Shown here one piece after another: positions 27,649 through 53,209 of a stretch of 64,000 nt of DNA (its first letter is position 1; the number at the start of each line of letters is the position of its first letter). A program made the position numbers and the translations under genes. The notes under the pieces were generated by a model, which did not search any database, had not been told where the DNA came from, and saw only the letters and a list, made by a program, of their open reading frames with translations. The stretch comes from Nocardia sp. NBC_01327 (lineage in GTDB: Bacteria > Actinomycetota > Actinomycetes > Mycobacteriales > Mycobacteriaceae), in assembly GCF_035958815.1 (NCBI RefSeq), contig NZ_CP108383.1, positions 124,001 through 188,000 on the forward strand. Reading direction: 5' to 3'.

Positions 27649-29483
<1,835 letters not shown>

Positions 29484-37687: not shown

Positions 37688-38848
37688 ATGCGCGCGGTCA
37701 CGGTAACCAAGGGCGAATTCCGAGTCCAGGAGCTGCCCGCTCCCACTCCCGGTCCCGGGCAGGTGCTGGTGAACGTGCTGCGGTGCGGCATCTGCGGCTC
37801 CGACCTGCACGCCCGGGTGCACTGCGACGAACTGGCCGATATGGCCGCCGCCACCGGATACCAGCACTTCATGCGCTCGGACCAGAGCGTGGTGATGGGG
37901 CACGAATTCTCCGGCGAGGTCGTAGATTACGGCTCGGGCGCCCGCCGGCGGTGGAAGCCTGGCACGCCGGTGGTGTCGCTGCCCATCCTGCGAACCGGGC
38001 GCACGCCGCACCTCACCGGGCTGTCGGCCGACGCGCCGGGCGGGTATGCCGAACAGGTGCTGGTGCAGGAGTCGATGACCTTTCCGATTCCGAACGGACT
38101 CTCCGCCGAGCATGCGGCGCTCACCGAGCCGATGGCGGTCGCCTGGCACGCCGTGCGCAAGGGGCGCGTCGGCAAGGGGCAGACCGCATTCGTCATCGGT
38201 TGCGGGCCCATCGGTCTCGCCGTCATCACCATGCTGAAGGCCTCCGGTGTCGCACTGGTGATCGCCAGCGATTTCTCCCCGCGCCGCCGGGAACTCGCCG
38301 CCGCCTGCGGAGCGGATGTGGTGGTCGACCCGGGCGCCGACTCGCCCTGGACCGCGTCACCGAAGAAGTCGCGCATCACCGGTGCCAGCGACATTCTCAA
38401 CCTCGGCTTCGACGCCATGGAACGACTGCGGCGGATTCCGAATCTGCCCTGGTGGTACATATTCCGGGCCGCGCACACCCTCAACAAGGGGCCCGCCGGG
38501 CCGGTCATCTTCGAATGTGTCGGCGTGCCGGGCATGATCGACCAGATCCTCACGGCCGCACCGCCGATGTCCCGCATCGTGGTGGTCGGCGTGTGTATGG
38601 AATCGGATCGCATCCATCCGGCCACCGCCATCAACAAGGAAATCGAACTGCGCTTCGTCCTCGGCTACGACCCCGGCGAATTCCGCGACACCCTGCACAT
38701 GATCGCCGACGGCAAAGTCGACCCCTCCCCCCTCATCACCGGCACCATCGGCCTGGACGGCGTCGATCCCGCCTACACCACCCTCGCCTCCCCCGACCAC
38801 CACGCCAAAATCCTGATCGACCCGGCCAGCACCGCAACCACCCTCTAG
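37688..38848 (+). CDS. Zinc-dependent medium-chain alcohol dehydrogenase
   Basis: This 386-residue MDR enzyme has a catalytic zinc site: CGICGSDLHARVH near residue 33-45 and the MGHEFSG motif (His, Glu), with a Rossmann motif VIGCGPIGLAVITMLKASG. The structural-zinc lobe with four closely spaced Cys is missing. An ~35-residue insertion (DMAAATGYQHFMRSDQS) precedes GHE. The insertion and C-terminal NKEIELRFVLGYDPGEFRDTLHMIADGKVD are typical of mycobacterial AdhD/zinc-type dehydrogenases. GGGAG precedes the ATG. Substrate unknown. The gene ends at a 23-bp perfect inverted repeat. Confidence 0.9.
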   Translation: MRAVTVTKGEFRVQELPAPTPGPGQVLVNVLRCGICGSDLHARVHCDELADMAAATGYQHFMRSDQSVVMGHEFSGEVVDYGSGARRRWKPGTPVVSLPILRTGRTPHLTGLSADAPGGYAEQVLVQESMTFPIPNGLSAEHAALTEPMAVAWHAVRKGRVGKGQTAFVIGCGPIGLAVITMLKASGVALVIASDFSPRRRELAAACGADVVVDPGADSPWTASPKKSRITGASDILNLGFDAMERLRRIPNLPWWYIFRAAHTLNKGPAGPVIFECVGVPGMIDQILTAAPPMSRIVVVGVCMESDRIHPATAINKEIELRFVLGYDPGEFRDTLHMIADGKVDPSPLITGTIGLDGVDPAYTTLASPDHHAKILIDPASTATTL

Positions 38849-38877
38849 CGGGCATCCACCAGGAACTGGGTAGCGCG

Positions 38878-38940
38878 CATCGACCAGGAACTGGTGGCGG
38901 GCCGTACTCGCACAATGCCGCCACCAGTTCCTGGTCGATG
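38878..38940. terminator. Perfect 23-bp inverted repeat between convergent genes
   Basis: The arms at 38878-38900 and 38918-38940 are exact reverse complements (core GACCAGGAACTGGTGGC) with a 17-nt loop. It ends 3 nt before the iniC-like stop and about 30 nt after the dehydrogenase stop, so it can terminate both. A partial third copy of the arm (ATCCACCAGGAACTGGG) lies at 38854-38870. Confidence 0.85.
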
Positions 38941-38943
38941 ACG

Positions 38944-40524
38944 TTATGGGTTGTGTGGTGGGGTGATTCGGGCGAAAGGGGTGGTGGGGGGTTCGTGGAG
39001 GATTTCCAGGAGGCCTTCGGCGCTGCGGGAGGCGGTCAGGCAGGCATTGACCATGGATTGGTCGGCGAGGGGGTGACGGGCTCGGGTACGCCACTTGTGG
39101 ACTGCGGTCAGGGCCTGCTCGCGTTGGGTGTGGATATCGGTGTGCGGGGGCAGTCCGAGGCGGCGGTGGGGGGCTACGCCTACGCCGCCGATCAGGCGAT
39201 GCAATTCCGCGAGATCGGCTGGGGGCAAGGGTAATTCGTCGGTGCGCAGGTGGCCCAGCAGCCGAAGTTCGGCGAAGCCGTGTACGTCGGAGAGCAGGGT
39301 CTTCACCCGGGGCAGCAGGGCATCGGCCTCGGTGCCGGGGTTGGCGACGAGAATGCGCGCCAGGGCGGTCAATGCGGAGTGCGCCTTCAATTCCTCTGCG
39401 CGCTGGGCGAATTGCACATCCAGGACGGTGCGCAGTTCGCCGAGGCCGCTGCGGGCGGTGAGTTCCGCTGCCAGCGAGGCGGAGTCGCGGACGCCGAGCC
39501 GAATCAGGGTGACGGCCAGGCGAATACCGAACAGGCCGAAGCGCGCCGCCAGGTGGGCGCGCAGGTCCGGCGGTACCGGGAGCGGCAGATCGGGGCGGGC
39601 GAAGCGGTCGGCCGACAGCAGGGCGGCGCTCACCTCGTCCACGGGTGCGGCGGCCAGGGCCTCGAAGGCCGCGTACTCGCGCTGCCGCAGGGTGGCCGCG
39701 GCGAAGGCCAGCAGGCCCGCGACCGGAATCACCGACTGGCACAGCCCGGTTCGCTCCAATTCGCCCGCGAATCGTGAGGCCACATCGCGCGCGGAATGCA
39801 GTGCGTCGATGCGCCCCGCACCGATCTCATCCGCACGCGACACCACACCGATCACCCCGAGCGGTCCGCCCGCGCCCGTGCCGGCGCCGATCTGTTCGAG
39901 AAAGTCCACGTCGGCGGTATCGAGCCGGCGCAGCAGGTAGACGACCGCATCCGCACCGGGCAGGGCGACTCCGGTTCCGCCGGGGGTGAGCAGGCGCGAG
40001 GTGCGCGCCGACACATCCCGCGACAGTGAGGAGATTCCGGGGGTGTCGATAATCGTGGTCTGGGCCAATTCCGCGGACGGCCACTCCACCGCCAGGTGGT
40101 CGACCTCACGGGCCCCGCCCGTATTCCAGCGCAGCGCAGCCAGATCGAAGGTGAGCCCGTGCGCACCCGGCAGCCCCTCCGCGCCGCGGCCGCGGCGCAC
40201 CACCACATCGGCGCGCGAGCCCTCCGGCGAATACGCGGTGACGCGGGGTGCGGCGCCGTGCCGATACCAGGTCACCAGGCGGGTGCACTCGGTCGCATCG
40301 GTGGGCGCGATATCCTGCCCCACCAGCGCATTCAACAGTGTCGACTTGCCCGCCTTGAGCTGTCCGGCCAGGGCGATCCGCAGCGGCTCGTCCAGCCGCC
40401 GCACACATTCCTCGAGCTGCCCGCGCACCCGTCCACGGTCGGCAAAGGACCGCCGGGCGGCCGCCAGCAGTCCCCGCGTCTCACCCCCCACCCCGTATCC
40501 GGGCCCGCCCACATCAAATCTCAT
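38944..40524 (-). CDS. iniC: IniC-like dynamin-family GTPase
   Basis: This 526-residue bacterial dynamin-like protein has a P-loop GQLKAGKSTLLNAL (Lys60), switch/G3 IIDTPGISSL, and a degenerate G4 (SRAD in place of T/NKxD). Predicted helical stalk regions follow (LGVRDSASLAAELTAR, QRAEELKAHSALTALARIL). It sits 327 nt downstream of iniA. In mycobacteria, IniA and IniC are induced by isoniazid, ethambutol and other cell-wall inhibitors, and IniA remodels membranes. The ATG at 40524 follows GGGAGC. Assignment as IniC rests on order and GTPase type. Confidence 0.82.
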   Translation of the reverse strand: MRFDVGGPGYGVGGETRGLLAAARRSFADRGRVRGQLEECVRRLDEPLRIALAGQLKAGKSTLLNALVGQDIAPTDATECTRLVTWYRHGAAPRVTAYSPEGSRADVVVRRGRGAEGLPGAHGLTFDLAALRWNTGGAREVDHLAVEWPSAELAQTTIIDTPGISSLSRDVSARTSRLLTPGGTGVALPGADAVVYLLRRLDTADVDFLEQIGAGTGAGGPLGVIGVVSRADEIGAGRIDALHSARDVASRFAGELERTGLCQSVIPVAGLLAFAAATLRQREYAAFEALAAAPVDEVSAALLSADRFARPDLPLPVPPDLRAHLAARFGLFGIRLAVTLIRLGVRDSASLAAELTARSGLGELRTVLDVQFAQRAEELKAHSALTALARILVANPGTEADALLPRVKTLLSDVHGFAELRLLGHLRTDELPLPPADLAELHRLIGGVGVAPHRRLGLPPHTDIHTQREQALTAVHKWRTRARHPLADQSMVNACLTASRSAEGLLEILHEPPTTPFARITPPHNP

Positions 40525-40851
40525 AGCGCTCCCGACCCGAACCACACACCGCACACATCGCCAACCTTTCGCCCCAACCCCGCCCGGTGTTAGCAACACG
40601 CCAGTTCCGGCGAGTGCGGGGCCCTATCGATGGCGCGCCCAGAGACTCGCCTCGAACCGCACCTGTGTCGTGCGAATCCCGCCTTCCGGCCGAACCAACC
40701 TCGGCTCACCGACACAGCCATGCCGGCGCAGCGGACATGCCGTGACCTGGAGACGGCGGGCTGTGGCAGACCCGCAGCGGGCCTGTGCACGCCGTAGCAG
40801 ACGCGCGACCAGCGGCCTCAGGCGAGCGGCCGGAGTCGGGGTGGCGGACGT
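40525..40851. other. Non-coding gap between iniA and iniC
   Basis: The 327-nt gap between the iniA stop and the iniC start is long for genes in one operon. No credible gene or strong terminator hairpin is visible, so it may carry a separate iniC promoter. It is GC-rich throughout, with scattered short repeats such as GACACAG and CGCACCTGTG. Confidence 0.4.
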
Positions 40852-42690
40852 TCAGGCGGGTGGCGGGAGGGCGGCCGGAGGCTGGGCGGGGGTGAGGGTG
40901 GCGGCGCGGCGGCGGAGGTCGGCTACGGCGTGCAGGCGGCGCTCGAGGAGGGCGGTGCGGGTGGCCCGGGCGGTGGATTCGAGGGTGGCGGCCTCCTGGG
41001 CGGCGCGGAGGGATTCGTCGAGGGAGCGCAGGGTGCGTTCGGCGATCGCGGTGAAGTGGTCGCGGAGCAGGCGGTGGATGCGGTGCAGGCGGTCCTTCGT
41101 CTCCTTGGCGGTGTGGAAGGCGACATCGTCCAGGTAGCGGCGCACGGCGAGTTTGGCATCGGCGCGGCGTTTGGCCAGGCGGGCCTGCTTATCGTCGCGG
41201 AAAGCCTTGCTGCCGAGGAGAAGTCCGGCACCCAGGGACAGCGGGTTGACCAGGGACAGGCCGGCGAGGGTGCCGACCAGACCGGCCATGACCACGCCGC
41301 CGTACGACCCGCGCACGCCGACCAGGAGTTTGTGGCCGAGGCCGAGGTCCGGTTCCAGATCCGAGAGGGTGCAGGAGCCGGCGCGAGAAGCGTCGCCGTC
41401 CAGGGTTTCCCGCACATCGGGGAGGTCGACCGCGCCCAGTTCGGTGAAATGGGTGGAGACCTGTTCGGCCAGCCGCACCGCGCGCGTGCGCGTCCACAGC
41501 AGATTGTCGCCGACCGCGGTGCCGACGGTGCCGGTGAGCCACTCCTCCATGCGTTCCCAGTGCCGGCCCGGATCATGCTCGTCGATCCAGTCCTCCGCGG
41601 TGCGGGAGATATTCCGCAGCCGATTGCGCAGATCGTGGTCGACATCGCCGACCAGATCGGTGATTCCGTCCCCGAGCGTCTGCTGCCAGACGGAGGTCTT
41701 GCGATGCAGCTGCTCGGCAGCTGTTCTCGCTGACTGCAATTCACGCACCGCGGCGGCGCCGCGCTCCGGATCCCGCAGCGCCACCAGCTCGCTGCCGAGC
41801 GCCAGCGCCAAATGCTCTGTGGCGGAATTGATATCGAGCGCGACGGCCTGCCGCACCGCCGCCTGATCACGGGCGACCACATGCTCGCGCAGGAAACCGA
41901 AGACCTCGCCGAACCCGGATTCGCGTCCGAGCTGCTCGTCCTGCAGGCGCAGGGCATGGGTGCGCAGCACCGAGGACACCGGCAGCATCGGCACGTCGAT
42001 TCCCGCACGGCTCAGGTGATTCCGGTTCGCCTCGGACACCTGCCGCCAGTGCGGATACAGATCGATCTTGGTGAGCAGCACCGCGACCGCCGGGCACAAC
42101 TCCCGCACCTGCCGCAGGAATTCGACCTCCGGATCGGTGAGTTCGGTGGACGCGTCGGTGAGCACCAGCACCGCATCGGCCGTCGGCACCGCGCCGAGCA
42201 CTCCGGCCGCACCGCTGCCGCCGTGCGCACCCAGCGCGGGGGTATCCACGACCACTATTCCGTCGGCGAGCAGCCGATTCGGCACCTCGATCTCGAGGCG
42301 TAATACCGCCCGCCCCTGCGCATGCGGTGACCGCGCGCCGACCGCGCCGATCTCCTCGACGGGCACCGGTAATCGGGTGACCTCCCCGTCCTGTGCGCCC
42401 GCGACCACCAGTTCCGCCCGGGCCGTCTGCCCGAACGCCAATACGGTGGTCACCGTGGTCGTCGTATCGTCGGCCACCGGGCAGATATCCAGATTGATCA
42501 GGGCGTTCACGAACTGGCTGCGCCCCTGATTCCCCAACCCGCACACCACGATCCGCCGCCGGGGGTCGCGCACCCGCCCCGCCACCGTCTCCAGCTGCGC
42601 GACCAGATCCCCGCGCTCCGCCCCCTCCGCCACCGCTATGGTTTCGGACAGTATCGACAGCAGCGGATCAACCGCCACGATCCCGCTCAT
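40852..42690 (-). CDS. iniA: IniA-like dynamin-family protein with altered P-loop
   Basis: This 612-residue dynamin-like protein has a P-loop region CGLGNQGRSQFVNAL in which the usual GKS Lys is Arg57, G3 VVDTPALGAHG, and G4 LLTKID. A long helical stalk follows, then a hydrophobic paddle-like segment (GGVVMAGLVGTLAGLSLVNPLSLGAGLLLGSKAF, about 455-490) that could contact membrane, and a C-terminal helical region ending in a Pro/Ala tail. M. tuberculosis IniA acts at the membrane during cell-wall stress. The ATG at 42690 has GAGGA upstream. Family assignment is solid; GTP hydrolysis is doubtful without the Lys. Confidence 0.85.
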   Translation of the reverse strand: MSGIVAVDPLLSILSETIAVAEGAERGDLVAQLETVAGRVRDPRRRIVVCGLGNQGRSQFVNALINLDICPVADDTTTTVTTVLAFGQTARAELVVAGAQDGEVTRLPVPVEEIGAVGARSPHAQGRAVLRLEIEVPNRLLADGIVVVDTPALGAHGGSGAAGVLGAVPTADAVLVLTDASTELTDPEVEFLRQVRELCPAVAVLLTKIDLYPHWRQVSEANRNHLSRAGIDVPMLPVSSVLRTHALRLQDEQLGRESGFGEVFGFLREHVVARDQAAVRQAVALDINSATEHLALALGSELVALRDPERGAAAVRELQSARTAAEQLHRKTSVWQQTLGDGITDLVGDVDHDLRNRLRNISRTAEDWIDEHDPGRHWERMEEWLTGTVGTAVGDNLLWTRTRAVRLAEQVSTHFTELGAVDLPDVRETLDGDASRAGSCTLSDLEPDLGLGHKLLVGVRGSYGGVVMAGLVGTLAGLSLVNPLSLGAGLLLGSKAFRDDKQARLAKRRADAKLAVRRYLDDVAFHTAKETKDRLHRIHRLLRDHFTAIAERTLRSLDESLRAAQEAATLESTARATRTALLERRLHAVADLRRRAATLTPAQPPAALPPPA

Positions 42691-42719
42691 CGCAGTCCTC
42701 GCAAATCTCTTCTCCGAGA

Positions 42720-42741
42720 CCGCATCCCGTCAAGGATGCGG
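42720..42741 (-). other. Hairpin between iniB and iniA
   Basis: An 8-bp stem (CCGCATCC / GGATGCGG) with a 6-nt loop lies in the 91-nt gap between iniB and iniA. It could reduce expression of the dynamin genes relative to iniB. Confidence 0.45.
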
Positions 42742-42781
42742 CCTCCCGCCAATACTCGCCCGGCACCGGGTCGCACCCCAC

Positions 42782-45115
42782 TCACGAGTGCAGCATGTCC
42801 CCGATAATGTCCCCACCCGGATGCGTCCCCAGATCGATCCCGGAATGCACCCCGCCATCCCCGAACAACCCCGCATCCGCACCCCCGGCATGCACCCCCT
42901 CCCCGAACGCATTCGAAACATCCAGCCCCGCCCAAGGATTCAACCCCGACCCCACCCCAACCTCAGCCCCACCCACCCCATGCGCCCCCACATCAACCCC
43001 ACTCCCCACCTGAGCCCCCACCCCACCGGCACCCTGCGCACCGACATCCACCCCGGTCCCCAACCCCCCGGAAACCCCGGCCCCCAATTCATTCCCGGCG
43101 TGCACCCCCGCCCCAACCGCAGAGTCAACCCCACCCGTAATTCCCGCACCCACCTGCGAACCACCGTGCAGCGCCGAATCCAAGCCCGAATCGAGCCCCG
43201 CGCCAACGCCACCGGCAGTCTGCGCACCAACATCGATGCCACTGGTCAACCCGGTCTCGAGACCAGCGCCAACCTGCGAACCACCGTGCAAGGCTGTATC
43301 CAAACCGGAGTTGAGCCCTGCGCCGACACCGCCGGCGGTCTGCGCACCGATATCCACACCGGTCCCCAACCCGCCGGAAAGCCCGGCAGACAGGTCATTT
43401 CCGGCGTGCACGCCAGCGCCGACCGCCGAATCGATACCACCGTTCAACCCGGTCTCGAGGCCCGCACCAATCTGCGAACCACCATGCAGGGCAGCATCCG
43501 GGCCCGAATTGAGGCCCGCCCCGAGACCACCGGCAGTCTGCGCACCGGCATCGATCCCGGTATTCAGACCGGCACCGAGCTGAGTTCCACCCCCGACAGC
43601 CGCGTTAGCTGCCCCGGAAAGCCCTGTCTCCAAACCACTTCCGATCTGCGCGCCCGCCCCCGCACCGGCTGCCAAACCACCGGAAAGCCCTGCATTCAGC
43701 TCACTCCCGAGCTGAGCACCCAGGCCGGTCGCACCGTTCACCGCACCATTCAGGCCGGTCTCCAAACCACCACCGAGCCCCACACCGGCGCCAACTGTGG
43801 AATCGATACCGCCGGAAAGCCCTGCGCCGAGATCACTTCCGAGATGCGCACCGAGATCCGTGGCACCGTTGACAGCGCCGTCGAGGCCGGTCTGCAGACC
43901 ACCGGATGCACCCAGGGCTGAATTCAGTCCGCCGGAAAGGTCCGCGGCCGCGCCGGTACCTGCATTCACCGCACCGGACAAGCCGGTCGCCAAACCACCG
44001 CCGAGGCCCGCACCAGCCTGTGCACCCGCACCGATCGCGGAATCTATGCCGCCGGAAAGCCCCGCGTTGAGATCGCTCCCGAGCTGGGTGCTGAGGCCGG
44101 TTGCGGCGTTGACCGCGCCATTCAGACCGGTGGCTACGTCGCCGCCGAGGCCCGCACCAAGCTGCGCGCCCGCACCGATTGCGGAGTCGATGCCGCCGGA
44201 AAGCCCTGTGCCGAGGTCACTTCCGAGGTGCGCGCCGAGGTCGGTCGCGCCGTTCAGCGCGCCATTGAGGCCGGTCTGCAGGCCACCGCCTGCGCCGAGG
44301 GCGGAGTCCAGTCCGCCGGAAAGGTTTGCGCCGAGATCTGCGGCAGCGGCGGTGCCTGCGTTGACTGCGCCGGAGAGGGTGGCTCCGGCTTGGCCGAGGG
44401 CGTCGGCGGCGGCTTGGACTCCGGCGGTCAGGCCGGCGCCGGCGGAGAGGCCACCGGTCAGGGCGGAGGTGAGGTCGGCGGCGGCTTGGGTGCCGAGGAC
44501 GCCGGAGAGGTTGGCTTCCAGGCCGGTTGCGGCGTTGGCGGCGCCGTCCAGGCCGGCGGAGAGACCGGCGCCGAGGGTGGAGGCCGCACCGGCGAGGGCG
44601 CCGATACCGGAGGAGAGGCCCAGTTCGAGGCCGGTTCCGGCGTCGCCGGTGAAGCAGACCTCGGTGCCGGTGGCGGTGGCCGTGCTGAGGTTCACGGTGG
44701 CGCCGGTCGTCCCCGCCGCGACCGTGCCGGTGTTCACCCCTACCGCACCATTGAGACCTGCGGCACCGTTCAGGCCGCTGGCGCCATTCAGCCCGGCAGC
44801 ACCATTGAGCCCGGCAGCACCATTGAGCCCACCTGCACCGTTCAACCCGAGGCCTCCATTCACTCCGAGGTTCCCGTTGAGCCCGGCGCCGGTGTCGGCC
44901 CCGGCCCCGGCGGCACAGATCGCGGACAGCTGCGAACCTCCCGCTACCAGCGCGGATTCGGCCACCATCGGCGCGACGGCGGTGATGTCCTCCGGCGTCA
45001 CCGACCCGAGCCCGGCGTCGGCGAGCGACTGTGCGGGGTTGGTGCAGTAGCCGGCCGCGGCTTCGTGATCCCGCAGCAGGTTGAGGATGAACTCGAGAAT
45101 TGCATTGGGGCTCAT
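42782..45115 (-). CDS. iniB: IniB-like protein with long Gly/Ala/Leu repeat region
   Basis: This protein begins with the IniB N-terminal domain (MSPNAILEFILNLLRDHEAAAGYCTNP...GLGSVTPEDITAVAPMV, ~1-65), then about 700 residues of low-complexity repeats rich in Gly, Ala, Leu, Ser and Asn. These include GLNGA pentads near 115-140 and later modules such as GLSGGIDSAIGAGAQ and QTAGGVGAGLNSGLD. At 777 residues it is much longer than mycobacterial IniB (about 480). The ATG at 45115 has AGGAGA upstream. It is first in the iniB-iniA-iniC row and divergent from the Hsp70-like gene. No signal peptide or membrane helix is evident; the biochemical role of IniB is unknown. Confidence 0.85.
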   Translation of the reverse strand: MSPNAILEFILNLLRDHEAAAGYCTNPAQSLADAGLGSVTPEDITAVAPMVAESALVAGGSQLSAICAAGAGADTGAGLNGNLGVNGGLGLNGAGGLNGAAGLNGAAGLNGASGLNGAAGLNGAVGVNTGTVAAGTTGATVNLSTATATGTEVCFTGDAGTGLELGLSSGIGALAGAASTLGAGLSAGLDGAANAATGLEANLSGVLGTQAAADLTSALTGGLSAGAGLTAGVQAAADALGQAGATLSGAVNAGTAAAADLGANLSGGLDSALGAGGGLQTGLNGALNGATDLGAHLGSDLGTGLSGGIDSAIGAGAQLGAGLGGDVATGLNGAVNAATGLSTQLGSDLNAGLSGGIDSAIGAGAQAGAGLGGGLATGLSGAVNAGTGAAADLSGGLNSALGASGGLQTGLDGAVNGATDLGAHLGSDLGAGLSGGIDSTVGAGVGLGGGLETGLNGAVNGATGLGAQLGSELNAGLSGGLAAGAGAGAQIGSGLETGLSGAANAAVGGGTQLGAGLNTGIDAGAQTAGGLGAGLNSGPDAALHGGSQIGAGLETGLNGGIDSAVGAGVHAGNDLSAGLSGGLGTGVDIGAQTAGGVGAGLNSGLDTALHGGSQVGAGLETGLTSGIDVGAQTAGGVGAGLDSGLDSALHGGSQVGAGITGGVDSAVGAGVHAGNELGAGVSGGLGTGVDVGAQGAGGVGAQVGSGVDVGAHGVGGAEVGVGSGLNPWAGLDVSNAFGEGVHAGGADAGLFGDGGVHSGIDLGTHPGGDIIGDMLHS

Positions 45116-45174
45116 GGCGAATCGTCTCCTGGGTGGGCGGGCCCGGCTGACCCGCACTGTTCGAATTGCTTTTC

Positions 45175-45273
45175 ACGCTAGGAACCCGACCCGTTACGCC
45201 GTAACGGGGTGAACTCCCCCCGTTTCGCGTGTCGCCTCGGTAGGGGGTTGATGGCGATTAGGGGAATTTCCCC
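45175..45273. promoter_or_regulatory. Divergent ini control region with palindromes
   Basis: In the 316-nt gap between iniB and the Hsp70-like gene, CCCGTTAC-GCC-GTAACGGG (45190-45208) is a perfect inverted repeat just upstream of a -10-like TAGCGT for iniB (minus strand, 45180-45175), overlapping where the -35 would lie. A second perfect palindrome, GGGGAA-T-TTCCCC, lies at 45261-45273. GGTAACGG at about 45290 resembles a half-site of the first. These are candidate sites for IniR or another envelope-stress regulator. The rest of the gap shows no gene. Confidence 0.5.
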
Positions 45274-45431
45274 GGAATCGCGCGGGAAACGGTAACGGCG
45301 GTCCCCCAGCAACCGACAGGTCCCATGGGTCATCCGGCCTGCACCACAGCCTTTCGCACATTTCGGACGTAACAGCTTTCGGCCAGCACGCGAATCACCC
45401 GACGCGTGTTTCGATCGACAGGGGATCTCGA

Positions 45432-47195
45432 ATGAGTCAGGGGATGGCGCTCGGCATTACTGTCGGGGCGTCCAATACGGTTGCCGTGACGACTTCGGGG
45501 GGACAGCGCAGACTGCACATCCGGCCGAGCATGATCGGCGCGGAGCACGAACTTCCGGAAAGCTTCCTGTCCAGGGTCGGAGACCCGGTGGATATCCGGA
45601 TGCGAGACGGATCCGCTGTGCGCGCAGCGGATCTCGTGGCCGCGGCGATCGGCCGGGCGGTGGACGATTCCGGCCTCGCCGCGGCCATGGTGGCCTGCTA
45701 TCCGGCCTGGTGGTCACAGCACACAGTGGAGGTACAGCGCGCGGCCCTCGCCGCCGCCGGACTCGACAGTGTGGCCCTGGTACCGGAACCTGCCGCCGCC
45801 ATGCGCTGGCTGCAGGAGGTGCACGAATCCACCCACGACGGCGCCATGATCGTGTACGACCTGGGCGCAACGGGTTTGACCGTTTCGGTGGCACGCACCG
45901 GCGCGCTGTCCGGTCTGCTCGGCGAGCCGGTGCGGTCGACCGCCGTGGCGGGCGCCGAGTTCGACCTCCTGACCATGCGTTACGCCCTGGGACTCGCCAT
46001 GGGTGAGACCGATTTCGACCCCTTCGATCCACTGGTCGAAAAGGAATTGGCCGAACTGCGGGTGCGCTGCAGGATCGCGAAAGAGGCGCTCTCCACACAC
46101 ACGGCGACCGTGATTCCGGTCCGCATGCCCGGCCAGAGCCCGATCGATGTCCGCCTGGTGCGTGATGAAGCCGAAGATCTCTACCGGGGTCCGCTGGTCG
46201 CCTCCATCGACCTGGTCCACGAGGCCGTGCGCCGCGCCGGACTGACCGCCGCCGAGGTGGACGGCATCCTGCTCACCGGCGGCGGCGCGGCCATCCCGCT
46301 GGTCACCGAACTGCTCTCCACCGAGTTCGGCGTCCCGGTGGCGGCCGCGGCCGATCCGGCCCATCTCAGTGCGCACGGCGCCGCATTGCTCGCCGCCGAC
46401 CTGCTGGCCGATACGACCGACACCGAAGCCCATCCGACCATCGCGCCACCGGCGCGCCGCGAGGATCACGACGGCAGCCGGACTCCTGCGGGCGAACGCG
46501 GAAATACCCAGCGCGACATCGCCACTCGGCTGGATGACCCGCGCAGCATGCAGATCGCCGCGATCGGCGATCTGTCCGGCGGCGCGGTCGAACCGGTTAC
46601 CGCCGTGAACAACAGCGGTGGTGAAGTCACCGGAAGCACTGTGGCAGCGGCGGTTCCACCACTACCCGAGCTACCCGACGAGGAACCTCGCACGGGTTTC
46701 ACACACTGGCGCAGGGTCGCGGTGATCGGCGCGGTGGCCATCGCGGTGGCCGCCCTCGCCACCGGAACCCTGGCCATGGGTACCGGTGCGCAGTCCGCGC
46801 CCTCGAATTCCACTGCGCCACAGGCTCCTGCGACATCCGTCGTCGCGCCGAATCCTTCTGCCGCCCCGGTGAATGCCGGTGGGCAGACGGCGAATACCGG
46901 CGGGCAGACGATACCGGTCACGCACGCGGGAGCTCCGGCACACGCGGGCGCCCCCGCCCCGGGCACGACGGCGGCGGCGCCGAACGCGGCAGCACCGGCG
47001 ACGCCCGGAGCGCCCGCACCCGCACCGGAGCAGGCGAATTCTCCCGCACCCCAGACGGTTCCGGCCGCACCCCAGCCGCAACTGCCCACGATTCCACAGC
47101 CCGTGATTACCGCGCCGACGGTCCAGCTTCCCGATCTGGGCCAGCTCGGCAAGGCAGTTCCCGCGGCGCCGACCATTCCGCATATCGGTGGCTGA
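45432..47195 (+). CDS. Membrane-anchored Hsp70-like (actin-fold) protein
   Basis: This 587-residue protein has an N-terminal Hsp70/actin-like nucleotide domain (1-~330): phosphate-1 LGITVGASNTVAV with Thr10 where DnaK has the catalytic Asp, phosphate-2 MIVYDLGATGLTVSVA, and adenosine motif DGILLTGGGAAIPLV. There is no substrate-binding domain. A linker follows, then one membrane helix (about 430-450, VAVIGAVAIAVAALATGTLAMG), and ~135 residues rich in Ala, Pro, Gly, Thr predicted outside the membrane. The ATG at 45432 has AGGGGA upstream. It lies divergent from iniBAC and 14 nt before iniR, so it probably works with them. ATPase activity is uncertain. Confidence 0.85.
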   Translation: MSQGMALGITVGASNTVAVTTSGGQRRLHIRPSMIGAEHELPESFLSRVGDPVDIRMRDGSAVRAADLVAAAIGRAVDDSGLAAAMVACYPAWWSQHTVEVQRAALAAAGLDSVALVPEPAAAMRWLQEVHESTHDGAMIVYDLGATGLTVSVARTGALSGLLGEPVRSTAVAGAEFDLLTMRYALGLAMGETDFDPFDPLVEKELAELRVRCRIAKEALSTHTATVIPVRMPGQSPIDVRLVRDEAEDLYRGPLVASIDLVHEAVRRAGLTAAEVDGILLTGGGAAIPLVTELLSTEFGVPVAAAADPAHLSAHGAALLAADLLADTTDTEAHPTIAPPARREDHDGSRTPAGERGNTQRDIATRLDDPRSMQIAAIGDLSGGAVEPVTAVNNSGGEVTGSTVAAAVPPLPELPDEEPRTGFTHWRRVAVIGAVAIAVAALATGTLAMGTGAQSAPSNSTAPQAPATSVVAPNPSAAPVNAGGQTANTGGQTIPVTHAGAPAHAGAPAPGTTAAAPNAAAPATPGAPAPAPEQANSPAPQTVPAAPQPQLPTIPQPVITAPTVQLPDLGQLGKAVPAAPTIPHIGG

Positions 47196-47209
47196 GAGTT
47201 GGTTCTCCC

Positions 47210-50200
47210 GTGATAGGCAATACCCCCGTCGCACTGGATTCCCTGCCGTGCACGCGAGAGATCTTCCGGGAGTTGGATTCCGATGATCCCGCTCCCCTGC
47301 TGTATCTGATTCGCGGACGCTCCGGCACCGGCAAATCAACCCTGCTGACTGCCATCCGCAATCGCCTCCGCGCCCGCGGCATCCCCCTGATCGAGGCCGC
47401 CGCCATCATGTCGGCCGACCCCGCATCGACGCGGCACGACCCCCTTCGGCCCGATGTATCCACCGAGCCGATCGCGGGCGAGCCGCAGAGCCGCAACGGT
47501 TCCGGCACCCCGGCTGACACGGTCGCGAGCACAACGCGACAAACCCGCAACGGTTCCGGCACTCCCACCGACGCGGTCACGAGCGCAACGCAGCAGGCCC
47601 GCAACGGTTCCGGCTCCCCCGCCGCCTCGATCGCGAGCACAACGCGACAAACCCGCAACGGTTCCGGCACTCCCACCGACGCGGTCACGAGCGCAACGCA
47701 GCAAGCCCGCAACGGTTCCGGCTCCCCCGCCGCCTCGATCGCGAGCGCAGTGCCGCAGGCTCGCGGCGGTTCTGGGGCGGCGGCCCGCTCGCGGGTCGCC
47801 GTGGTGGTCGACGATGCGCACGGTTTGAGCCCGGCGGAGTTCGACAGGTTGTGTGCCGTCGCCGAATCCGGCGCCTGCACCGTCGTGATCGCGACGCTGC
47901 CCCGACCGCACGACCCGCGATTGCGCGCCCTGGCCGAACTGGTGGCGCGGCGCGGGCGGGTGGTGGATCTACGGGCCCTCGGTGCGACCGAGATCGCCCC
48001 TTTTGCACGCGAACTGGGCATGATGGTGCCTCGCGGGCTGGCGCAGCACATCCACCGCCAGACCGCCGGGATCCACGGCGGCGTGGTGGCGGCGCTGACC
48101 GCGGCCTGCGCGACCCGCCTGGACGCGGGTCTCAGCGCGGTCGACGATGCCGTCGCCGGCTGGGCGCGAGGCCGGCTGGACGACGCCGATCCGGACCTGC
48201 TGGACACCTTCGTGGTGGCCGCCATCGGCGCGGGCCTGGATACCGCCGAACTTGCCGAGGTGCTGGACGTGACCCCCACGGCCGCACAGGATCTGGTCGA
48301 TCGCGCTCGCAGCAGCGCCCTGGTCACCGATGCCGATCTGCTGCTGACCCCGGCCATCGCACCGCTGCGCACGCTGGTCGGCGACCGCCGGGTGCTCGCG
48401 GTACAGCGCAGACTTCTGCAGGCCCGGCTGGACGCGGGCCTGCTGCGCGATCACACCGCACTGCTGCTGGCCGAATCCGGCGTCCGCGATCCCCGGTTGG
48501 CCGAATTCCTCTGCGCCACAGCTGAGAAGGCGGGCGACGAAGCCGTCCGCCACTACGCCGCCGCGGCCACGGCCGGCGCCGATCTCGAGGCCATCGCCCT
48601 GCGCTGGGCCGATGCCGCCGCCCGCACCGGCGACTGCGACACCGCCCTCCGCCTCGCCGAACCCGTCCTGGCCCGCCCGCATGCCGCGCCCGCGGAACTC
48701 GCTGCCGCGGTGCGCATCTGCGCGGGCGTCTGGACTCGCCGCGGTCTCGCCAATCGGGCCGCGCAGCTCTACACCTGGCTCGGCGCGGATCGAGTCGGCG
48801 CGGACTGGGCGGTGGCCGCCACCGTCCTGTACCTCGCGGGCCACGCGCCCACGGCCCGCGCCCTGTCCACCTGCTCCGCCCACTGGCCGCCCACCGAGGC
48901 CACCGCCCGCACCGCCCTCATCGCCGAAGCCCTGGCCGATTCGGTCGAAACCCTCCCACCCCCGGCACATTTCACCGCCGATCCCACAAACCGCACGTAC
49001 CCGACCCCCGCCGACGCCACCCAATTCGCCCCAGCCCCACAGCGCCCCACCGCCGGATTCGCCCCAGCGTCGCACCTGCCCACCGCCTATGCCGCCCGGG
49101 GCGCAGCTGATCGGGGTGGTGAAGGTGTGGATCGGCCGGCACTCACCGGCGCTGCCCGATTGACCGCCATGACGCATGGCTCGTCCGAACTCGCGCCGGT
49201 TCCACCGCGTTTCACGACTCGGGCGGGCGAGGCCGGGCGGAGTGCGGCGGTCGCGGCGGCGTCCGCGCTGATTCACGCGGCGCATTCGGGGGTGGCGCCC
49301 AATGAGAACGGCGGGGACCGATTCCTGCCGTGCTCGGCGGTATCCATTGCGACGCTGCTGTGCCTGTCGATGGGCGAACCCCGGCGGGCCGCGGACGCCT
49401 TGCGCGGCGCCGGCCACGATCCGCAGAGCCTGGTGCTCGGCGCGTGGGTCGCCATGCTGGGCGGCGACGAGCAGGCCGCGGCCGCCGTGGTCGCCGGACT
49501 GGACCTGGCCGCACTCGATCCCCGGGACCGGCTGCTGGCGCACGGCGTCATCGTCGGATTGGCCAGGCGCAGCGGCGATCACACGGCTCTCACGCTGGCT
49601 TGGCAGCAGGCCTACCCGCTGTTCGACGAGGTGAGCGCGGACCTGCTGGCCCTGCTGCCGATCGGCGAATTGTGGCTTGCCGGAATCCGATTGCGCGATG
49701 AGGGCCGGATGACAGCCCTGGTCGACGCGGCCGGAGAACTGCTGCGCGTCCTGGGCGATCCGCCCGCATGGTCGAATGCCTTCCACTGGTACGCGATTCA
49801 GGCCGCCATCGCCCACGAGAGCCCGAACGACCTGGTGCCGCACGCCCATCGACTCAAGGCCGCCGCCGAATCCGGTGATTCGCAAGCCGCCGCGCTGGCG
49901 GACGCGGGCCGCACCTGGGTGCTGGTGCTGCGCGGTCAGGTGGAGCGCGTCCAGGTGGAGGCCGCGGTCGGCCGCCTGGCCGGACTCGGCCTGATCTGGG
50001 ATGCCGCCCGCCTCGCCAGCGAGGCCGCCCTGGCCGCCGACGACCCGGTCACCGCGACCGCCCTGCTCAAGCTGGCCCGCACCCTGCGCACCCGGGCACG
50101 CCCGCCGGAGGTGCGCGCACCGGCTCCGGCCGCCCCGCCGCCGCGCCCGGAACCGCGCACCGATACGGTCCTGAGTGAACGCGAGCGAGAGGTCGCGGAG

Positions 50201-50368
50201 CTCGTACTGCTCGGCCTGACCTACCGGGAAATCGGGGCTCGCCTCTATATCTCCGCGAAAACCGTCGAGCATCACGTCGCCCGGATACGGCGTCGGATCG
50301 GTGCGAGCTCGCGTTCGGAGTTATTGTCAATGCTCCGCGCCATGGGTCACGGTTCCCTCCTCGTATGA
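47210..50368 (+). CDS. iniR: IniR-like ATPase/LuxR-type transcriptional regulator
   Basis: This 1052-residue regulator resembles M. tuberculosis IniR (Rv0339c), the large LuxR-type activator of iniBAC. An N-terminal STAND/AAA-type ATPase has Walker A GRSGTGKS (36-43) and Walker B VAVVVDDAH (196-204). A long helical repeat region follows, then a C-terminal LuxR HTH (about 986-1030): LSEREREVAELVLLGLTYREIGARLYISAKTVEHHVARIRRRIG. Between Walker A and B lie five 18-residue tandem repeats. GTG start at 47210. It sits between the two Hsp70-like genes, 14 and 46 nt from them, so the three form one operon. Confidence 0.85.
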   Translation: MIGNTPVALDSLPCTREIFRELDSDDPAPLLYLIRGRSGTGKSTLLTAIRNRLRARGIPLIEAAAIMSADPASTRHDPLRPDVSTEPIAGEPQSRNGSGTPADTVASTTRQTRNGSGTPTDAVTSATQQARNGSGSPAASIASTTRQTRNGSGTPTDAVTSATQQARNGSGSPAASIASAVPQARGGSGAAARSRVAVVVDDAHGLSPAEFDRLCAVAESGACTVVIATLPRPHDPRLRALAELVARRGRVVDLRALGATEIAPFARELGMMVPRGLAQHIHRQTAGIHGGVVAALTAACATRLDAGLSAVDDAVAGWARGRLDDADPDLLDTFVVAAIGAGLDTAELAEVLDVTPTAAQDLVDRARSSALVTDADLLLTPAIAPLRTLVGDRRVLAVQRRLLQARLDAGLLRDHTALLLAESGVRDPRLAEFLCATAEKAGDEAVRHYAAAATAGADLEAIALRWADAAARTGDCDTALRLAEPVLARPHAAPAELAAAVRICAGVWTRRGLANRAAQLYTWLGADRVGADWAVAATVLYLAGHAPTARALSTCSAHWPPTEATARTALIAEALADSVETLPPPAHFTADPTNRTYPTPADATQFAPAPQRPTAGFAPASHLPTAYAARGAADRGGEGVDRPALTGAARLTAMTHGSSELAPVPPRFTTRAGEAGRSAAVAAASALIHAAHSGVAPNENGGDRFLPCSAVSIATLLCLSMGEPRRAADALRGAGHDPQSLVLGAWVAMLGGDEQAAAAVVAGLDLAALDPRDRLLAHGVIVGLARRSGDHTALTLAWQQAYPLFDEVSADLLALLPIGELWLAGIRLRDEGRMTALVDAAGELLRVLGDPPAWSNAFHWYAIQAAIAHESPNDLVPHAHRLKAAAESGDSQAAALADAGRTWVLVLRGQVERVQVEAAVGRLAGLGLIWDAARLASEAALAADDPVTATALLKLARTLRTRARPPEVRAPAPAAPPPRPEPRTDTVLSEREREVAELVLLGLTYREIGARLYISAKTVEHHVARIRRRIGASSRSELLSMLRAMGHGSLLV
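47492..47761 (+). repeat. In-frame 54-bp minisatellite inside iniR
   Basis: Five units of 54 bp start at 47492, 47546, 47600, 47654 and 47708, each encoding 18 residues beginning RNGSG (for example RNGSGTPTDAVTSATQQA), followed by a degenerate RGGSG. Units 2 and 4 encode the same peptide and units 3 and 5 are nearly the same, so the array also has a 108-bp higher-order period. It encodes residues 95-184, between Walker A and Walker B. Confidence 0.95.
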
Positions 50369-50414
50369 CCACGGCGCGGAGGAAAATCAGGACGCACCGA
50401 GTGAGGTAACCACG

Positions 50415-51557
50415 ATGGCCACAGGGGTGGGCCTGCGGATAGCCGACGACGAATCCGTCGTGGCCGTCGTCACGGGCGATGACGCGACACTCCCGGTGCA
50501 CTACATCGTGCGCGAGTCGATCCTGCACATGGCCGATGACGGTGACGCGGTGCTCGGCGGCGATCCGCCGGAGGGCCCGTCGAATTCGATCCGCGGATTC
50601 GTGAGCGCCGTCGGCGATCCGGCGGGCATGCCGGTCGACGAGGGCGAGGCGTACCGCGCCGAAGACCTGATGGCCACCGCCGCCTTCTGCCTGATCAATC
50701 TGGCCGCCGATCATCTGAACGGCCCGGCCGAGTTCTATGCCACCTATCCGACGGCGTGGCCGGACGAGAATATCCAGGCCCTGCGCGAGGCCCTCGACTA
50801 TCTGGGCCTGAAGTCGGTGGTGCTGGTCAGCGAACGCGATCTGCCCCAGCCGGACGCCGACGACGCCGGAAAGTCGTTCGCACACAATGCCGCTCGCGCC
50901 GCACTGGCCGCGGTGCTCGCGACCCCCGCCGGTCTGACCCCGCCCGATCCCACCGCCAGCACCCAGAATGCCGCCGACGTCACCGATATCCTGCCCGCGC
51001 TGTCGGCGCCCGAGCCGCTCGCACAGGCGTATTCGGCGGCGTTCCCGGCGGCCACCACCGTCGATTCGGCGGTCGGTCCGATCACCGCCGAACAGCCGAT
51101 CGTGCAGCTGCCGAAGCAGCGTGCCAATCGCGGTCCGTACATGATCGCCGCCGCCACGGCCATTATCGGTTTGCTCCTGGGTGGCCTCGGGGTGGCGGCG
51201 GTGTTGCGTCCGGACGACTCCCCGGCCGGTCCGCCGCGCGGTGAGGTGGCCAATCAACCGGCGGCGACCGCGGGCGCGGTACCGCCGCTGCTACCACCGA
51301 GTCCCGGCCCGCCGGCGGCCGCAGTGCCCGCACCCGCCGATTCGTTCGAAGCCCCGGCAACGACGAATCCGCCCATCACCACGGTGCCGCCGACCACCAC
51401 CACCGAACCGCCCCCGCCGACCACCACGGTTCGGCCCACACCACCGCCGACCACGACGCCGGCCTACCCGCCGTATTACACGTACCCGCCGGTGCCCACC
51501 TGGCAGCTGCCGACGGCCCCGGTCTTCCAGGACCCCTGGCCACAGAGTCCGTACTGA
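50415..51557 (+). CDS. Truncated Hsp70-like membrane protein (half nucleotide domain)
   Basis: This 380-residue paralog of the Hsp70-like protein at 45432 keeps only its first half. GVGLRIADDESVVAVVT matches its start. AEDLMATAAFCLINLAADHLNGPAEFYATYP...LREALDYLGLKSVVLVSE matches AADLVAAAIGRAVDDS...ACYPAWWSQHTVEVQRAALAAAGLDSVALVPE. The phosphate-2 and adenosine motifs are missing. A membrane helix follows (about 241-262, MIAAATAIIGLLLGGLGVAAVL), then a ~115-residue Pro/Thr-rich extracytoplasmic tail ending in Tyr/Pro-rich sequence. It cannot bind nucleotide like an Hsp70, so a scaffold or sensor role is more likely. The ATG at 50415 has GAGG 8 nt upstream. Confidence 0.82.
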   Translation: MATGVGLRIADDESVVAVVTGDDATLPVHYIVRESILHMADDGDAVLGGDPPEGPSNSIRGFVSAVGDPAGMPVDEGEAYRAEDLMATAAFCLINLAADHLNGPAEFYATYPTAWPDENIQALREALDYLGLKSVVLVSERDLPQPDADDAGKSFAHNAARAALAAVLATPAGLTPPDPTASTQNAADVTDILPALSAPEPLAQAYSAAFPAATTVDSAVGPITAEQPIVQLPKQRANRGPYMIAAATAIIGLLLGGLGVAAVLRPDDSPAGPPRGEVANQPAATAGAVPPLLPPSPGPPAAAVPAPADSFEAPATTNPPITTVPPTTTTEPPPPTTTVRPTPPPTTTPAYPPYYTYPPVPTWQLPTAPVFQDPWPQSPY

Positions 51558-51661
51558 TTTAGTAGAGACCTTCTGTGGTTTGTACCCTAAAGTGGTGCGC
51601 TGACCGATGTTCCGCAAAGTAACCGGACTGTCGGTCTGCTGGTGCACTACGAAGGGACTCC

Positions 51662-53020
51662 ATGCGCAAGTTCATGGCGCGCCGCGCCACGGTCCGAGCT
51701 GCAACCATCACGTTCGCTTCGACCGTCCTAGTCGGAACCTTGTTCGCATCGATTCCCGCCGGCGCCGAGCCGGCCGATCAACTCGCCGCCGACAAGCTGC
51801 CTGCCGAACTGGTGCAGGCGATTTCGCGCGATCTGAAGATGACGCCGTCCGAATATCTGGACCGCGCCGCCAAGGCTCAGCAATTGCGGGACTACGCAAC
51901 GGAATTCCGCTCCCAGCGCCCCGACGAGTTCGCGGGCGCCTGGATGGGCACCGACGGTAAGCCCGTCCTCGCCGTCACCTCCCTCGATGCGGCCAAGGTG
52001 GTCGCCGCCGATGGTTACCAGACCCGGCTGGCTCCGATCAGCGCCGACAATCTGGAGGGTTCGGTGGATCAGCTGAACCACTGGATCACCAGCCTGCCGC
52101 GGGAAATCTCCGGCGCCATCAACTCGGTGGCAATCGATTTCCTCAACAGCCAACTGGTACTGAGTGTGGCGAACACTCCGGCCGGACATCTGCTGAATCT
52201 GCCGACCCTGATCGCGAATATCAAGGTGGTGCTGTCTCCCGACAGCGGCGGCCCGGTCGAGCGGCGCCCTATGGGTGGCGACACCTATATCAGCGCTCCC
52301 ACCTCGCTCAATGATTCGGCGTTGACGACTGTGGATGTCTGCTCGTTCGGATTCAACAGTGTCGATTCGTCCGGTAATGCGCTGAACATCAGTGCCGGGC
52401 ACTGCAATCCGAATATCGGCAAGGACAATCAGCAGGCCGATGTCTACCTGCCGAATGTTCACAATCTGACCGCCAGCCCGCAGCTGGGCAGCTTCGTGCG
52501 CTCACAGCTGGGTGGCGGCAATGCCCTCGACTACTCGGTGATCAAGCTGAACGACTCCGCGGTGAAGGCGGGCATGGATCAGCCGTCGGTCCGCGGCGCC
52601 AACGGCACCACGCTCACCATTACCGGTGTGGCCGATCCGATCACCGGCGCGCCGGTCTGCAAGTCGGGCCAATCCTCCACGTTCACTTGTGGTTTCGTCG
52701 TGGCCGATCGGGTCGAGACGCAGCTGTACACCTCGGAGGGCCAGTCCAAGACGGTGCGCGGCTTCGCCAGCAGCGCCTGCACCCTCGGCGGTGACAGCGG
52801 TGGCGCGATCGTGTCGGGCACCATGGCGCTCGGCATCACCAGCGGCTCGAATGCCGCCGACGCGCCGAATTGCAACGAGGCCAATACCCAGCTGGCGCAG
52901 TACGGTGGAACCGCGAGCCTGGGCATTCCGATCCGCGCCATTCTCACTGATATCGATGCGAATTCCGGCGGCGGTCTCGGCAGTGGCATTCAGGTGCGTT
53001 CGCGCTCCAACACGAACTGA
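51662..53020 (+). CDS. Secreted S1-family serine protease, first of two
   Basis: This 452-residue preproprotein has a signal peptide (about residues 1-35, cleavage after IPAGA-E), a prodomain with LPAELVQAISRDLKMTPSEYLDRA typical of alpha-lytic-protease-like enzymes, and a trypsin/chymotrypsin-fold domain with triad His247 (NISAGHCNP), Asp290 (ALDYSVIKL) and Ser379 (GGDSGGAI). Several Cys probably form disulfides. The ATG at 51662 follows GAAGGGA. It lies downstream of the ini-associated operon but across a 104-nt gap with its own likely promoter, and is followed by a 15-bp hairpin and a paralog. Confidence 0.9.
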   Translation: MRKFMARRATVRAATITFASTVLVGTLFASIPAGAEPADQLAADKLPAELVQAISRDLKMTPSEYLDRAAKAQQLRDYATEFRSQRPDEFAGAWMGTDGKPVLAVTSLDAAKVVAADGYQTRLAPISADNLEGSVDQLNHWITSLPREISGAINSVAIDFLNSQLVLSVANTPAGHLLNLPTLIANIKVVLSPDSGGPVERRPMGGDTYISAPTSLNDSALTTVDVCSFGFNSVDSSGNALNISAGHCNPNIGKDNQQADVYLPNVHNLTASPQLGSFVRSQLGGGNALDYSVIKLNDSAVKAGMDQPSVRGANGTTLTITGVADPITGAPVCKSGQSSTFTCGFVVADRVETQLYTSEGQSKTVRGFASSACTLGGDSGGAIVSGTMALGITSGSNAADAPNCNEANTQLAQYGGTASLGIPIRAILTDIDANSGGGLGSGIQVRSRSNTN

Positions 53021-53036
53021 ATCTGAACTTCGGCCG

Positions 53037-53086
53037 AACGCGAGCCGAACCCGAATCCCCTGCGGGTTCGTGGTTCGGCTCGCGTT
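53037..53086 (+). terminator. Terminator after the first S1 protease gene
   Basis: A perfect 15-bp stem (AACGCGAGCCGAACC / GGTTCGGCTCGCGTT) with a 20-nt loop, itself partly paired, begins 16 nt after the stop. Confidence 0.8.
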
Positions 53087-53209
53087 TGTGATCGAGCCGC
53101 GCACCCTACGCCTATGCCCACGAACCCTCAGCGCGAAACGCTCAGGAATTACGCTCGGGCGCGCGGCAATAAGTAGGCATAACGGGCTGGAGCCCATATA
53201 GTCGGCGTC

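What the first reader, a model, noticed from the sequence alone, without database searches (positions are those of the whole stretch)
38944..51557. An expanded ini locus pairing dynamins and IniB with membrane-anchored Hsp70-like proteins and IniR
In mycobacteria iniBAC (IniB plus dynamins IniA/IniC) responds to cell-wall inhibitors under IniR. Here the same set is divergent from an operon Hsp70TM-iniR-halfHsp70TM. Both Hsp70-like proteins have a cytoplasmic actin-type domain, one membrane helix and a Pro/Ala/Thr-rich outer tail, and the spacing (14 and 46 nt) ties them to iniR. I infer a membrane signalling system: outer tails sense wall integrity, actin-fold domains relay to the IniR ATPase, and IniR induces IniB and membrane-remodelling dynamins. 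I know of no description of this combination, but I could not search.
Basis: partly seen in the sequence, partly recalled or inferred. Interest (0 to 1): 0.85.

Follow-up and report, generated by a model that had tools for sequence, protein, structure and literature searches.

The report
Membrane actin-fold partners of IniR
In mycobacteria and their relatives the gene for IniR, the switch that turns on a cell-wall alarm, nearly always sits directly behind a gene for a predicted membrane-anchored relative of the chaperone Hsp70 that nearly always lacks one catalytic residue, and this overlooked protein likely holds the switch off until the envelope is damaged.

Summary
In detail: iniB-iniA-iniC (38944-45115, -) diverges from Hsp70TM-iniR-halfHsp70TM (45432-51557, +). 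It is not a local expansion but the common, probably ancestral, layout. Hsp70TM lies directly upstream of iniR in 96 of 98 informative loci of the window's GTDB family, 17 of 20 outside it, and 65 of 65 in a named collection (Mycolicibacterium, Micromonospora, Lentzea, Solihabitans). Hsp70TM is predicted to be a complete Hsp70-type ATPase fold without subdomain IB, one helix (N-in), and a Pro/Ala/Thr tail; the phosphate-1 aspartate is missing in 93 of 94 aligned, the phosphate-2 aspartate kept in 94 of 94. The second protein is a true half: lobe I only. New here: a TAGGGGA box, predicted to be IniR's site, in 87 of 93 iniB-Hsp70TM intergenic regions. In mycobacteria a second Hsp70TM sits either behind iniR with this box in front (16 of 17; 0 of 39 where it is absent) or behind iniC (19 loci), never both. 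Best reading (inferred): a MalK-like membrane brake on a MalT-like regulator. Main rival: part of the dynamin machine. Boot 2017 mentions a dnaK-like gene beside iniR in M. smegmatis in one sentence; I found nothing more in print.

The parts
38944..40599 (-). iniC, dynamin-like GTPase
   Evidence: PF00350 44.7 bits; conserved synteny
40852..42690 (-). iniA, dynamin-like GTPase
   Evidence: PF00350 39.4 bits; conserved synteny
42782..45115 (-). iniB, IniB N-terminal domain plus Gly/Ala-rich repeats (ORF open to 45157; ATG at 45115 likely start)
   Evidence: NF038175 65.6 bits; tandem repeats; start codon
45257..45273 (+). Predicted IniR operator, ATTAGGGGAATTTCCCC; exact match only here in the 9.4-Mb genome
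   Evidence: TAGGGGA in 87 of 93 homologous intergenic regions; genome search
45432..47195 (+). Hsp70TM: Hsp70-type actin-fold domain without subdomain IB, one membrane helix, Pro/Ala/Thr-rich outer tail
   Evidence: Pfam, AF2 model, Foldseek, conservation
46704..46760 (+). Hsp70TM membrane helix (aa 425-443)
   Evidence: AF2 helix 425-443; hydropathy and positive-inside rule
47210..50368 (+). iniR, STAND/AAA ATPase with LuxR-type HTH
   Evidence: NF038181 478 bits; GerE 52.8 bits; A5 profile over the order
50415..51557 (+). Half-Hsp70TM: lobe I of the Hsp70 ATPase fold only, one membrane helix, Pro/Thr-rich outer tail
   Evidence: AF2 model, Foldseek to DnaK lobe I; 57 of 106 family loci have a half or full-length relative downstream of iniR on its strand
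51135..51203 (+). Half-Hsp70TM membrane helix (aa 241-263)
   Evidence: AF2 helix 241-263

Best explanation
The locus is an order-wide envelope-stress module in which a predicted membrane-anchored, Hsp70-like protein (Hsp70TM) encoded directly upstream of iniR likely holds the IniR activator inactive at the membrane until envelope damage, after which IniR would bind TAGGGGA boxes and switch on iniB-iniA-iniC. Inferred steps: in the resting cell the cytoplasmic actin-fold domain, predicted to bind but hardly hydrolyse ATP, tethers IniR much as the idle MalK subunit anchors MalT in E. coli. A change felt through the outer tail (free trehalose or wall strain) and/or a rise in ATP would alter the lobes and release IniR. 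The half protein (Nocardia and others) or a second Hsp70TM predicted to be under IniR control (mycobacteria) would pair with the first and reset the switch. Shown: gene order, conserved box, sequence and predicted-fold homology, loss of the phosphate-1 aspartate, placement of second copies next to the box or behind iniC. Not shown: any binding, any signal, the sign of the effect.
For: Hsp70TM directly upstream of iniR in 96 of 98 informative family loci, 17 of 20 outside the family, 65 of 65 informative named loci. Topology N-in in 92 of 92 scored, giving the system a membrane-spanning part; Boot 2017 argues that the signal is sensed in the periplasm (PMC5760070 section 15, passage seen). Blocking the ATP surge suppresses iniBAC induction (PMC6104191, passages). 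The nucleotide pocket is partly kept: phosphate-2 Asp 94/94, two Gly 95/95, adenine-site Lys/Arg 94/94, while the phosphate-1 Asp is lost in 93/94. Second copies sit behind the box or behind iniC, never both, as two separate clades, fitting feedback. Precedents: MalK anchors MalT, the STAND regulator to which Boot likens IniR (PMC10427625, passages; PMC5760070 section 10); DnaK is HspR's co-repressor (PMC10415612, passages). IniR overexpression alone induces iniBAC (PMC5760070 section 11), as expected if a limiting brake is titrated.
Against: IniR functions in M. marinum and M. tuberculosis, for which Boot names no such neighbour. L065 has IniR and iniBAC with the Hsp70TM moved beyond iniC; L194 has IniR and iniBAC but no Hsp70TM, L189 IniR alone. 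In the window's own genome a second iniBAC-like locus pairs an Hsp70TM paralogue with dynamins and no IniR. In L143 and L187 the Hsp70-like gene is parted from iniR but stays beside iniBAC, though these copies score closer to DnaK. Hsp70TM distances follow IniA/IniC (0.89/0.94) more closely than IniR (0.79) over 67 loci. Boot's abstract and discussion report mce1 and iniR mutants, not such a gene, from the loss-of-induction screen. No interaction was modelled or measured.
Confidence: 0.43

Rival explanations
1. Hsp70TM and the half protein are part of the induced machine: membrane-bound actin-fold scaffolds that work with IniB and the dynamins IniA/IniC to seal or remodel the damaged envelope, and do not regulate IniR.
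For: In mycobacteria the second Hsp70TM is the gene after iniC on the same strand (19 of 58 loci; 23-128 nt from the iniC stop to the matched domain) or has its own box (16 of 17). The own-genome second locus has iniB2-A2-C2 divergent from an Hsp70TM and no IniR. Distances follow the dynamins best. When separated from iniR, the gene stays by iniBAC (L065, L143, L187).
Against: The first Hsp70TM is not in the iniBAC operon but directly before iniR, with near-invariant adjacency even in Micromonospora and Lentzea, which is unusual for a mere effector.
Confidence: 0.34
2. Hsp70TM is a positive relay: tails sense wall damage and the actin fold activates IniR.
For: Same gene order and topology evidence; periplasmic sensing argued in PMC5760070.
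Against: IniR overexpression induces without a drug signal; IniR operates in species for which no such neighbour is named, and L194 has none.
Confidence: 0.15
3. The adjacency is a relic of the nearby dnaK region and the proteins are ordinary chaperones.
For: dnaK lies in the same window at 27753-29474; the best PDB matches of Hsp70TM are Hsp70/DnaK chains.
Against: No substrate-binding domain matched and no subdomain IB, phosphate-1 Asp lost in 93 of 94, a VGD[PA] signature in 91 of 95 and in 0 of 12 DnaK, and second copies follow the box.
Confidence: 0.04

Closest known systems
Mycobacterial iniR-iniB*-iniBAC (Boot et al. 2017, PMC5760070)
   Same: IniR-type STAND activator, IniB-type proteins, two dynamins, dedicated locus; one sentence reports a dnaK-like gene beside iniR in M. 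smegmatis
   Different: The Hsp70-like genes, their membrane anchor, the half protein, their conservation and the box are not treated in the sections and passages I read
MalT with MalK/MalY/Aes (E. coli maltose system; PMC10427625)
   Same: STAND regulator of similar layout, kept inactive by a membrane-bound ATP-binding partner
   Different: [quoted passage not shown] Hsp70TM is an actin-fold protein with its own predicted membrane helix; binding to IniR is untested
HspR-DnaK (actinobacterial heat-shock repressor and co-repressor; PMC10415612)
   Same: An Hsp70-type protein controls a transcription factor encoded in the same operon
   Different: Soluble intact chaperone (recalled), repressor rather than activator
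Ssz1 and other non-canonical Hsp70s
   Same: Hsp70 ATPase fold with impaired hydrolysis (recalled); Ssz1 chains are among the Foldseek matches of the half protein
   Different: Ribosome-associated, no membrane helix (recalled)

Membership tests
iniBAC/IniR stress module | IniB N-terminal domain protein followed by two dynamin-like GTPases | tested here: met
iniBAC/IniR stress module | IniR: AAA/STAND ATPase with C-terminal LuxR HTH, encoded beside iniB | tested here: met
   GerE over its cut-off, AAA matches below theirs; NF038181 478 bits, under NCBI's naming cut-off of 750, which only 9 of 201 family genomes pass
iniBAC/IniR stress module | Induction by wall inhibitors through IniR | not testable with these tools
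   Needs an experiment; shown for mycobacteria in PMC5760070
Hsp70 chaperone (DnaK/HscA) | Hsp70-type ATPase (actin) fold | tested here: met
   for Hsp70TM; the half protein has lobe I only
Hsp70 chaperone (DnaK/HscA) | Catalytic phosphate-1 aspartate (Asp10 of Hsc70, numbering recalled) | tested here: not met
   Thr in the window; Asp in 1 (L125) and Glu in 1 (L127) of 94 aligned with a letter
Hsp70 chaperone (DnaK/HscA) | Substrate-binding domain after the ATPase domain | tested here: not met
   Pfam match ends at residue 326; disordered linker, membrane helix and Pro/Ala/Thr tail instead
MalK-type anchor of a STAND regulator | Membrane-bound and binds the regulator | not testable with these tools
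   Membrane helix predicted; binding not tested
IniR operator | Conserved DNA element upstream of iniB in IniR loci | tested here: met
   87 of 93 regions, 4.15 per kb against 0.040 per kb in the rest of the same loci
IniR operator | Bound by IniR | not testable with these tools
   Only a ChIP-seq peak upstream of iniBAC is in print (PMC5760070 section 11)

The most novel reading that the evidence does not exclude
A new kind of transmembrane signalling switch: a pair of membrane-anchored actin-fold proteins, one whole but catalytically crippled and one reduced to a single lobe, clasps a cytoplasmic STAND transcription activator and releases it on envelope damage or ATP surge, and has governed the wall-stress response of the mycobacterial order since before its families split.
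Probability: 0.25. Interest if true: 0.87.

Novelty: new variant of a known kind. Interest (0 to 1): 0.67.

Why it matters
The iniBAC promoter is the one most strongly induced by isoniazid and ethambutol in mycobacteria (PMC5760070 abstract), yet how its DNA-binding regulator learns of damage outside the membrane is open. This work names a conserved, predicted membrane-spanning candidate encoded beside the regulator across the order, and a predicted operator, so the question becomes testable with gene removals in harmless laboratory strains. A half-actin membrane protein would also be a new use of one of the oldest folds.

Tried and rejected
Sequence search of the half protein against the PDB gave nothing at E 1, so its relation to Hsp70 rests on profile, fold and AF2 evidence. 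Rfam found no RNA family at gathering thresholds in 38000-52000. Promoter -10 search: TANNNT is enriched about 70 nt from the first box toward iniB (24 of 85 in a 3-nt window; best of one shuffle 3), nothing toward Hsp70TM; I build nothing on it. Co-occurrence of IniR and Hsp70TM (100 of 106 IniR+ genomes against 7 of 95 IniR- ones have a match of about E 3e-60 or better, counted by hand; Fisher) is weak support for a direct link: the six IniR+ misses are five assemblies broken at the locus (G091, G098, G132, G133, G186) and G011, whose divergent copy (138 bits, L113) scores too low; and of 44 IniR- genomes examined, 4 Nocardia kept only a 38-39% identical IniA relative and the other 40 had nothing better than E 1e-18, so the whole locus is lost together. 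I first took G011 for a true loss of Hsp70TM; one search showed a divergent copy directly upstream of iniR. The Fisher values ignore relatedness. No TAGGGGA was found in the 15 Micromonospora loci, so the box is not universal. The other Hsp70TM-like paralogues of the genome (L159-L162) have no IniR-like neighbour; L162 has an HTH-type ORF two genes away that I did not follow. HpoR's motif (PMC13413693, passages) is a different sequence.

Rows dropped: 8 of 106 family loci had under about 350 bp upstream of iniR at a contig end (places); 12 of 77 named loci were truncated; 13 of 106 family loci gave no intergenic region; of 58 mycobacterial named loci, 2 had too little sequence behind iniR for the box contrast. 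Some species occur both in the unnamed and the named set, so I do not add the counts.
Full report
What is there. The window lies at C1:124001-188000 of a 9.4-Mb genome. Its closest named proteins are from Nocardia, Hsp70TM 89% identical in Nocardia sp. NBC_01388. Two start points: iniB likely starts at ATG 45115, and the half gene at ATG 50415.

Structure. From the window protein and 48 homologues (A1), AlphaFold2 gives Hsp70TM residues 1-329 mostly above pLDDT 90, then a disordered linker, a helix at 425-443 and a disordered tail. Foldseek matches it to DnaK ATPase domains (best E 2e-21). The half protein (A2, 48 homologues) folds confidently only for residues 1-170, plus a helix at 241-263. 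It matches the first lobe of DnaK (best E 2e-5). So it is a real lobe, closed by its own C-terminal helix, rather than a failed gene: comparable genes with a membrane helix and Pro/Ala/Thr tail recur in several genera, sometimes two in tandem; 57 of 106 family loci have a half or full-length relative downstream of iniR on its strand. Of 95 upstream Hsp70TM, 93 show a membrane helix by hydropathy, with a median tail of 176 residues.

Active site. In 95 family Hsp70TM aligned with the window's own DnaK, the position of the phosphate-1 Asp holds Asp in 1 (L125), Glu in 1 (L127), another residue in 92 (Thr in the window) and a gap in 1. The phosphate-2 Asp is kept in 94 of 94 with a letter, the two Gly of the adenosine motif in 95 of 95, the adenine-site Lys as Lys or Arg in 94 of 94, and the connect-1 Glu as Glu or Asp in 92 of 94. 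I infer nucleotide binding with poor hydrolysis. The Hsc70 residue roles are recalled.

Conservation. IniR matches of about 100 bits or more occur in 106 of 201 family genomes (counted). I fetched all 106 loci (and the window). A first count found Hsp70TM upstream of iniR on its strand in 95; a profile check added L113, a divergent copy (138 bits), for 96. Of these, 94 end within 250 nt of the start of the iniR match, L071 at 510 nt, and L056 overlaps it. Of the other 10, eight end at a contig break and two (L065, L143) carry the gene elsewhere in the locus. Divergent iniB-iniA-iniC is the usual partner. Outside the family, 43 of 170 genomes of the order have IniR (hand count); I took 20 of these 43 loci: 17 have the same order (in L179 the Hsp70TM frame stays open on through iniR), L187 has the gene beside iniB but away from iniR, L189 and L194 have none. 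In a scan of named species genomes, 77 loci were returned, 12 truncated; all 65 others have it, 63 within 250 nt.

The box. In 93 extractable iniB-Hsp70TM intergenic regions, TAGGGGA occurs in 87 on either strand. Its density there is 4.15 per kb against 0.040 per kb in the rest of the same loci, and 51 of 4483 random same-length segments hold it. Eighty regions carry two or more TAGGGG on the same strand, most often 18 nt apart (51 pairs). In the window it is part of the inverted repeat ATTAGGGGAATTTCCCC, found exactly once in the genome, with one other site at two mismatches. Boot 2017 found a ChIP-seq peak of IniR directly upstream of iniBAC (PMC5760070 section 11), so I predict that this is IniR's site. 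The distance from the first box to iniB varies less (s.d. 25 nt) than that from the last box to Hsp70TM (45 nt).

Second copies. Among 58 mycobacterial loci of the named set, 17 have a second Hsp70TM right after iniR; 16 of these carry TAGGGG[AG] (either strand) within 220 nt after the iniR stop, while 0 of 39 loci without that gene do. In 19 other loci a second Hsp70TM follows iniC on the same strand, 23-128 nt from the iniC stop to the matched domain. No locus has both; of the 35 loci with more than 900 bp beyond iniC, 25 have a second copy in one of the two places and 10 have none there. In a tree the two kinds form separate clades (17 and 20 sequences, support 0.99 and 1.0; one downstream copy, L215, falls apart, and deeper nodes have support near 0.5), so two lineages came under the box by different routes. 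This is the strongest sign that these proteins belong to the IniR response. In the non-mycobacterial loci the half gene follows iniR without a box of its own: of 49 family loci with a gene close behind iniR only the four full-length cases L059-L062 have one; there it would be co-transcribed with iniR.

Reading. Two roles fit. (a) Brake: Hsp70TM, directly before iniR, would tether IniR as MalK tethers MalT (PMC10427625), and induced second copies give feedback. (b) Effector: the proteins work with the dynamins, as suggested by the own-genome second iniBAC-like locus without iniR or box, by L065, L143 and L187, and by distance correlations. I favour (a) narrowly because adjacency to iniR is near-invariant, because the signal is argued to be sensed in the periplasm while IniR binds DNA (PMC5760070), and because the ATP surge is needed for induction (PMC6104191). 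Neither is shown.

Print. Searches: iniR/iniBAC, promoter and box words, Rv0312/Hsp70/actin-like, iniBAC with Hsp70/DnaK/Nocardia, membrane Hsp70 (no paper), iniBAC with dnaK-like (one paper), IniR with Hsp70 (none). Listings were seen in part: 20 of 101, 12 of 12, 15 of 127 and 15 of 131 papers in the first four. Of PMC5760070 I read the abstract, sections 10, 11 and 17, and passages. Its one sentence says that M. [quoted passage not shown] I saw no paper in this open-access library that describes the membrane anchor, the half protein, the conservation or the box; most subscription papers are not covered.

Noticed in passing
window 47491-47746: A 108-bp in-frame tandem repeat (2.4 copies, 95% matches) covers about 85 residues of the IniR ATPase domain between Walker A and the DDAH motif; probably a recent expansion.
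   Followed up: partly
L158 2106-10683 (own genome C1:1366000-1385900): A second iniBAC-like locus: two dynamins, a 1190-aa repeat protein in iniB's place, divergent Hsp70TM paralogue, no IniR and no TAGGGGA box.
   Followed up: partly
L039, L042, L046: Three Nocardia loci carry a second, shortened IniR-like gene (ATPase part and HTH, middle missing) between iniR and the half gene.
   Followed up: no
window 45190-45208: A second inverted repeat, CCCGTTACG-C-CGTAACGGG, near the box; related words (CCAACGGG in 46, GTAACGA in 37 of 93 regions) recur. Unexplained.
   Followed up: no
window 51662-54562: Two adjacent trypsin-like proteins with signal-peptide-like starts follow the half gene (19.8 and 21.7 bits, cut-off 20.6).
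   Followed up: no
L143 795-3287: In G031 the ini-locus Hsp70-like protein keeps a DnaK-like VDLGTT motif, lies after iniC, and has a TAGGGGA upstream: perhaps an intermediate form.
   Followed up: partly
L160 7883-9523: An Hsp70TM-like paralogue sits between ORFs that look by eye like tsaD and groES/groEL in the own genome.
   Followed up: no
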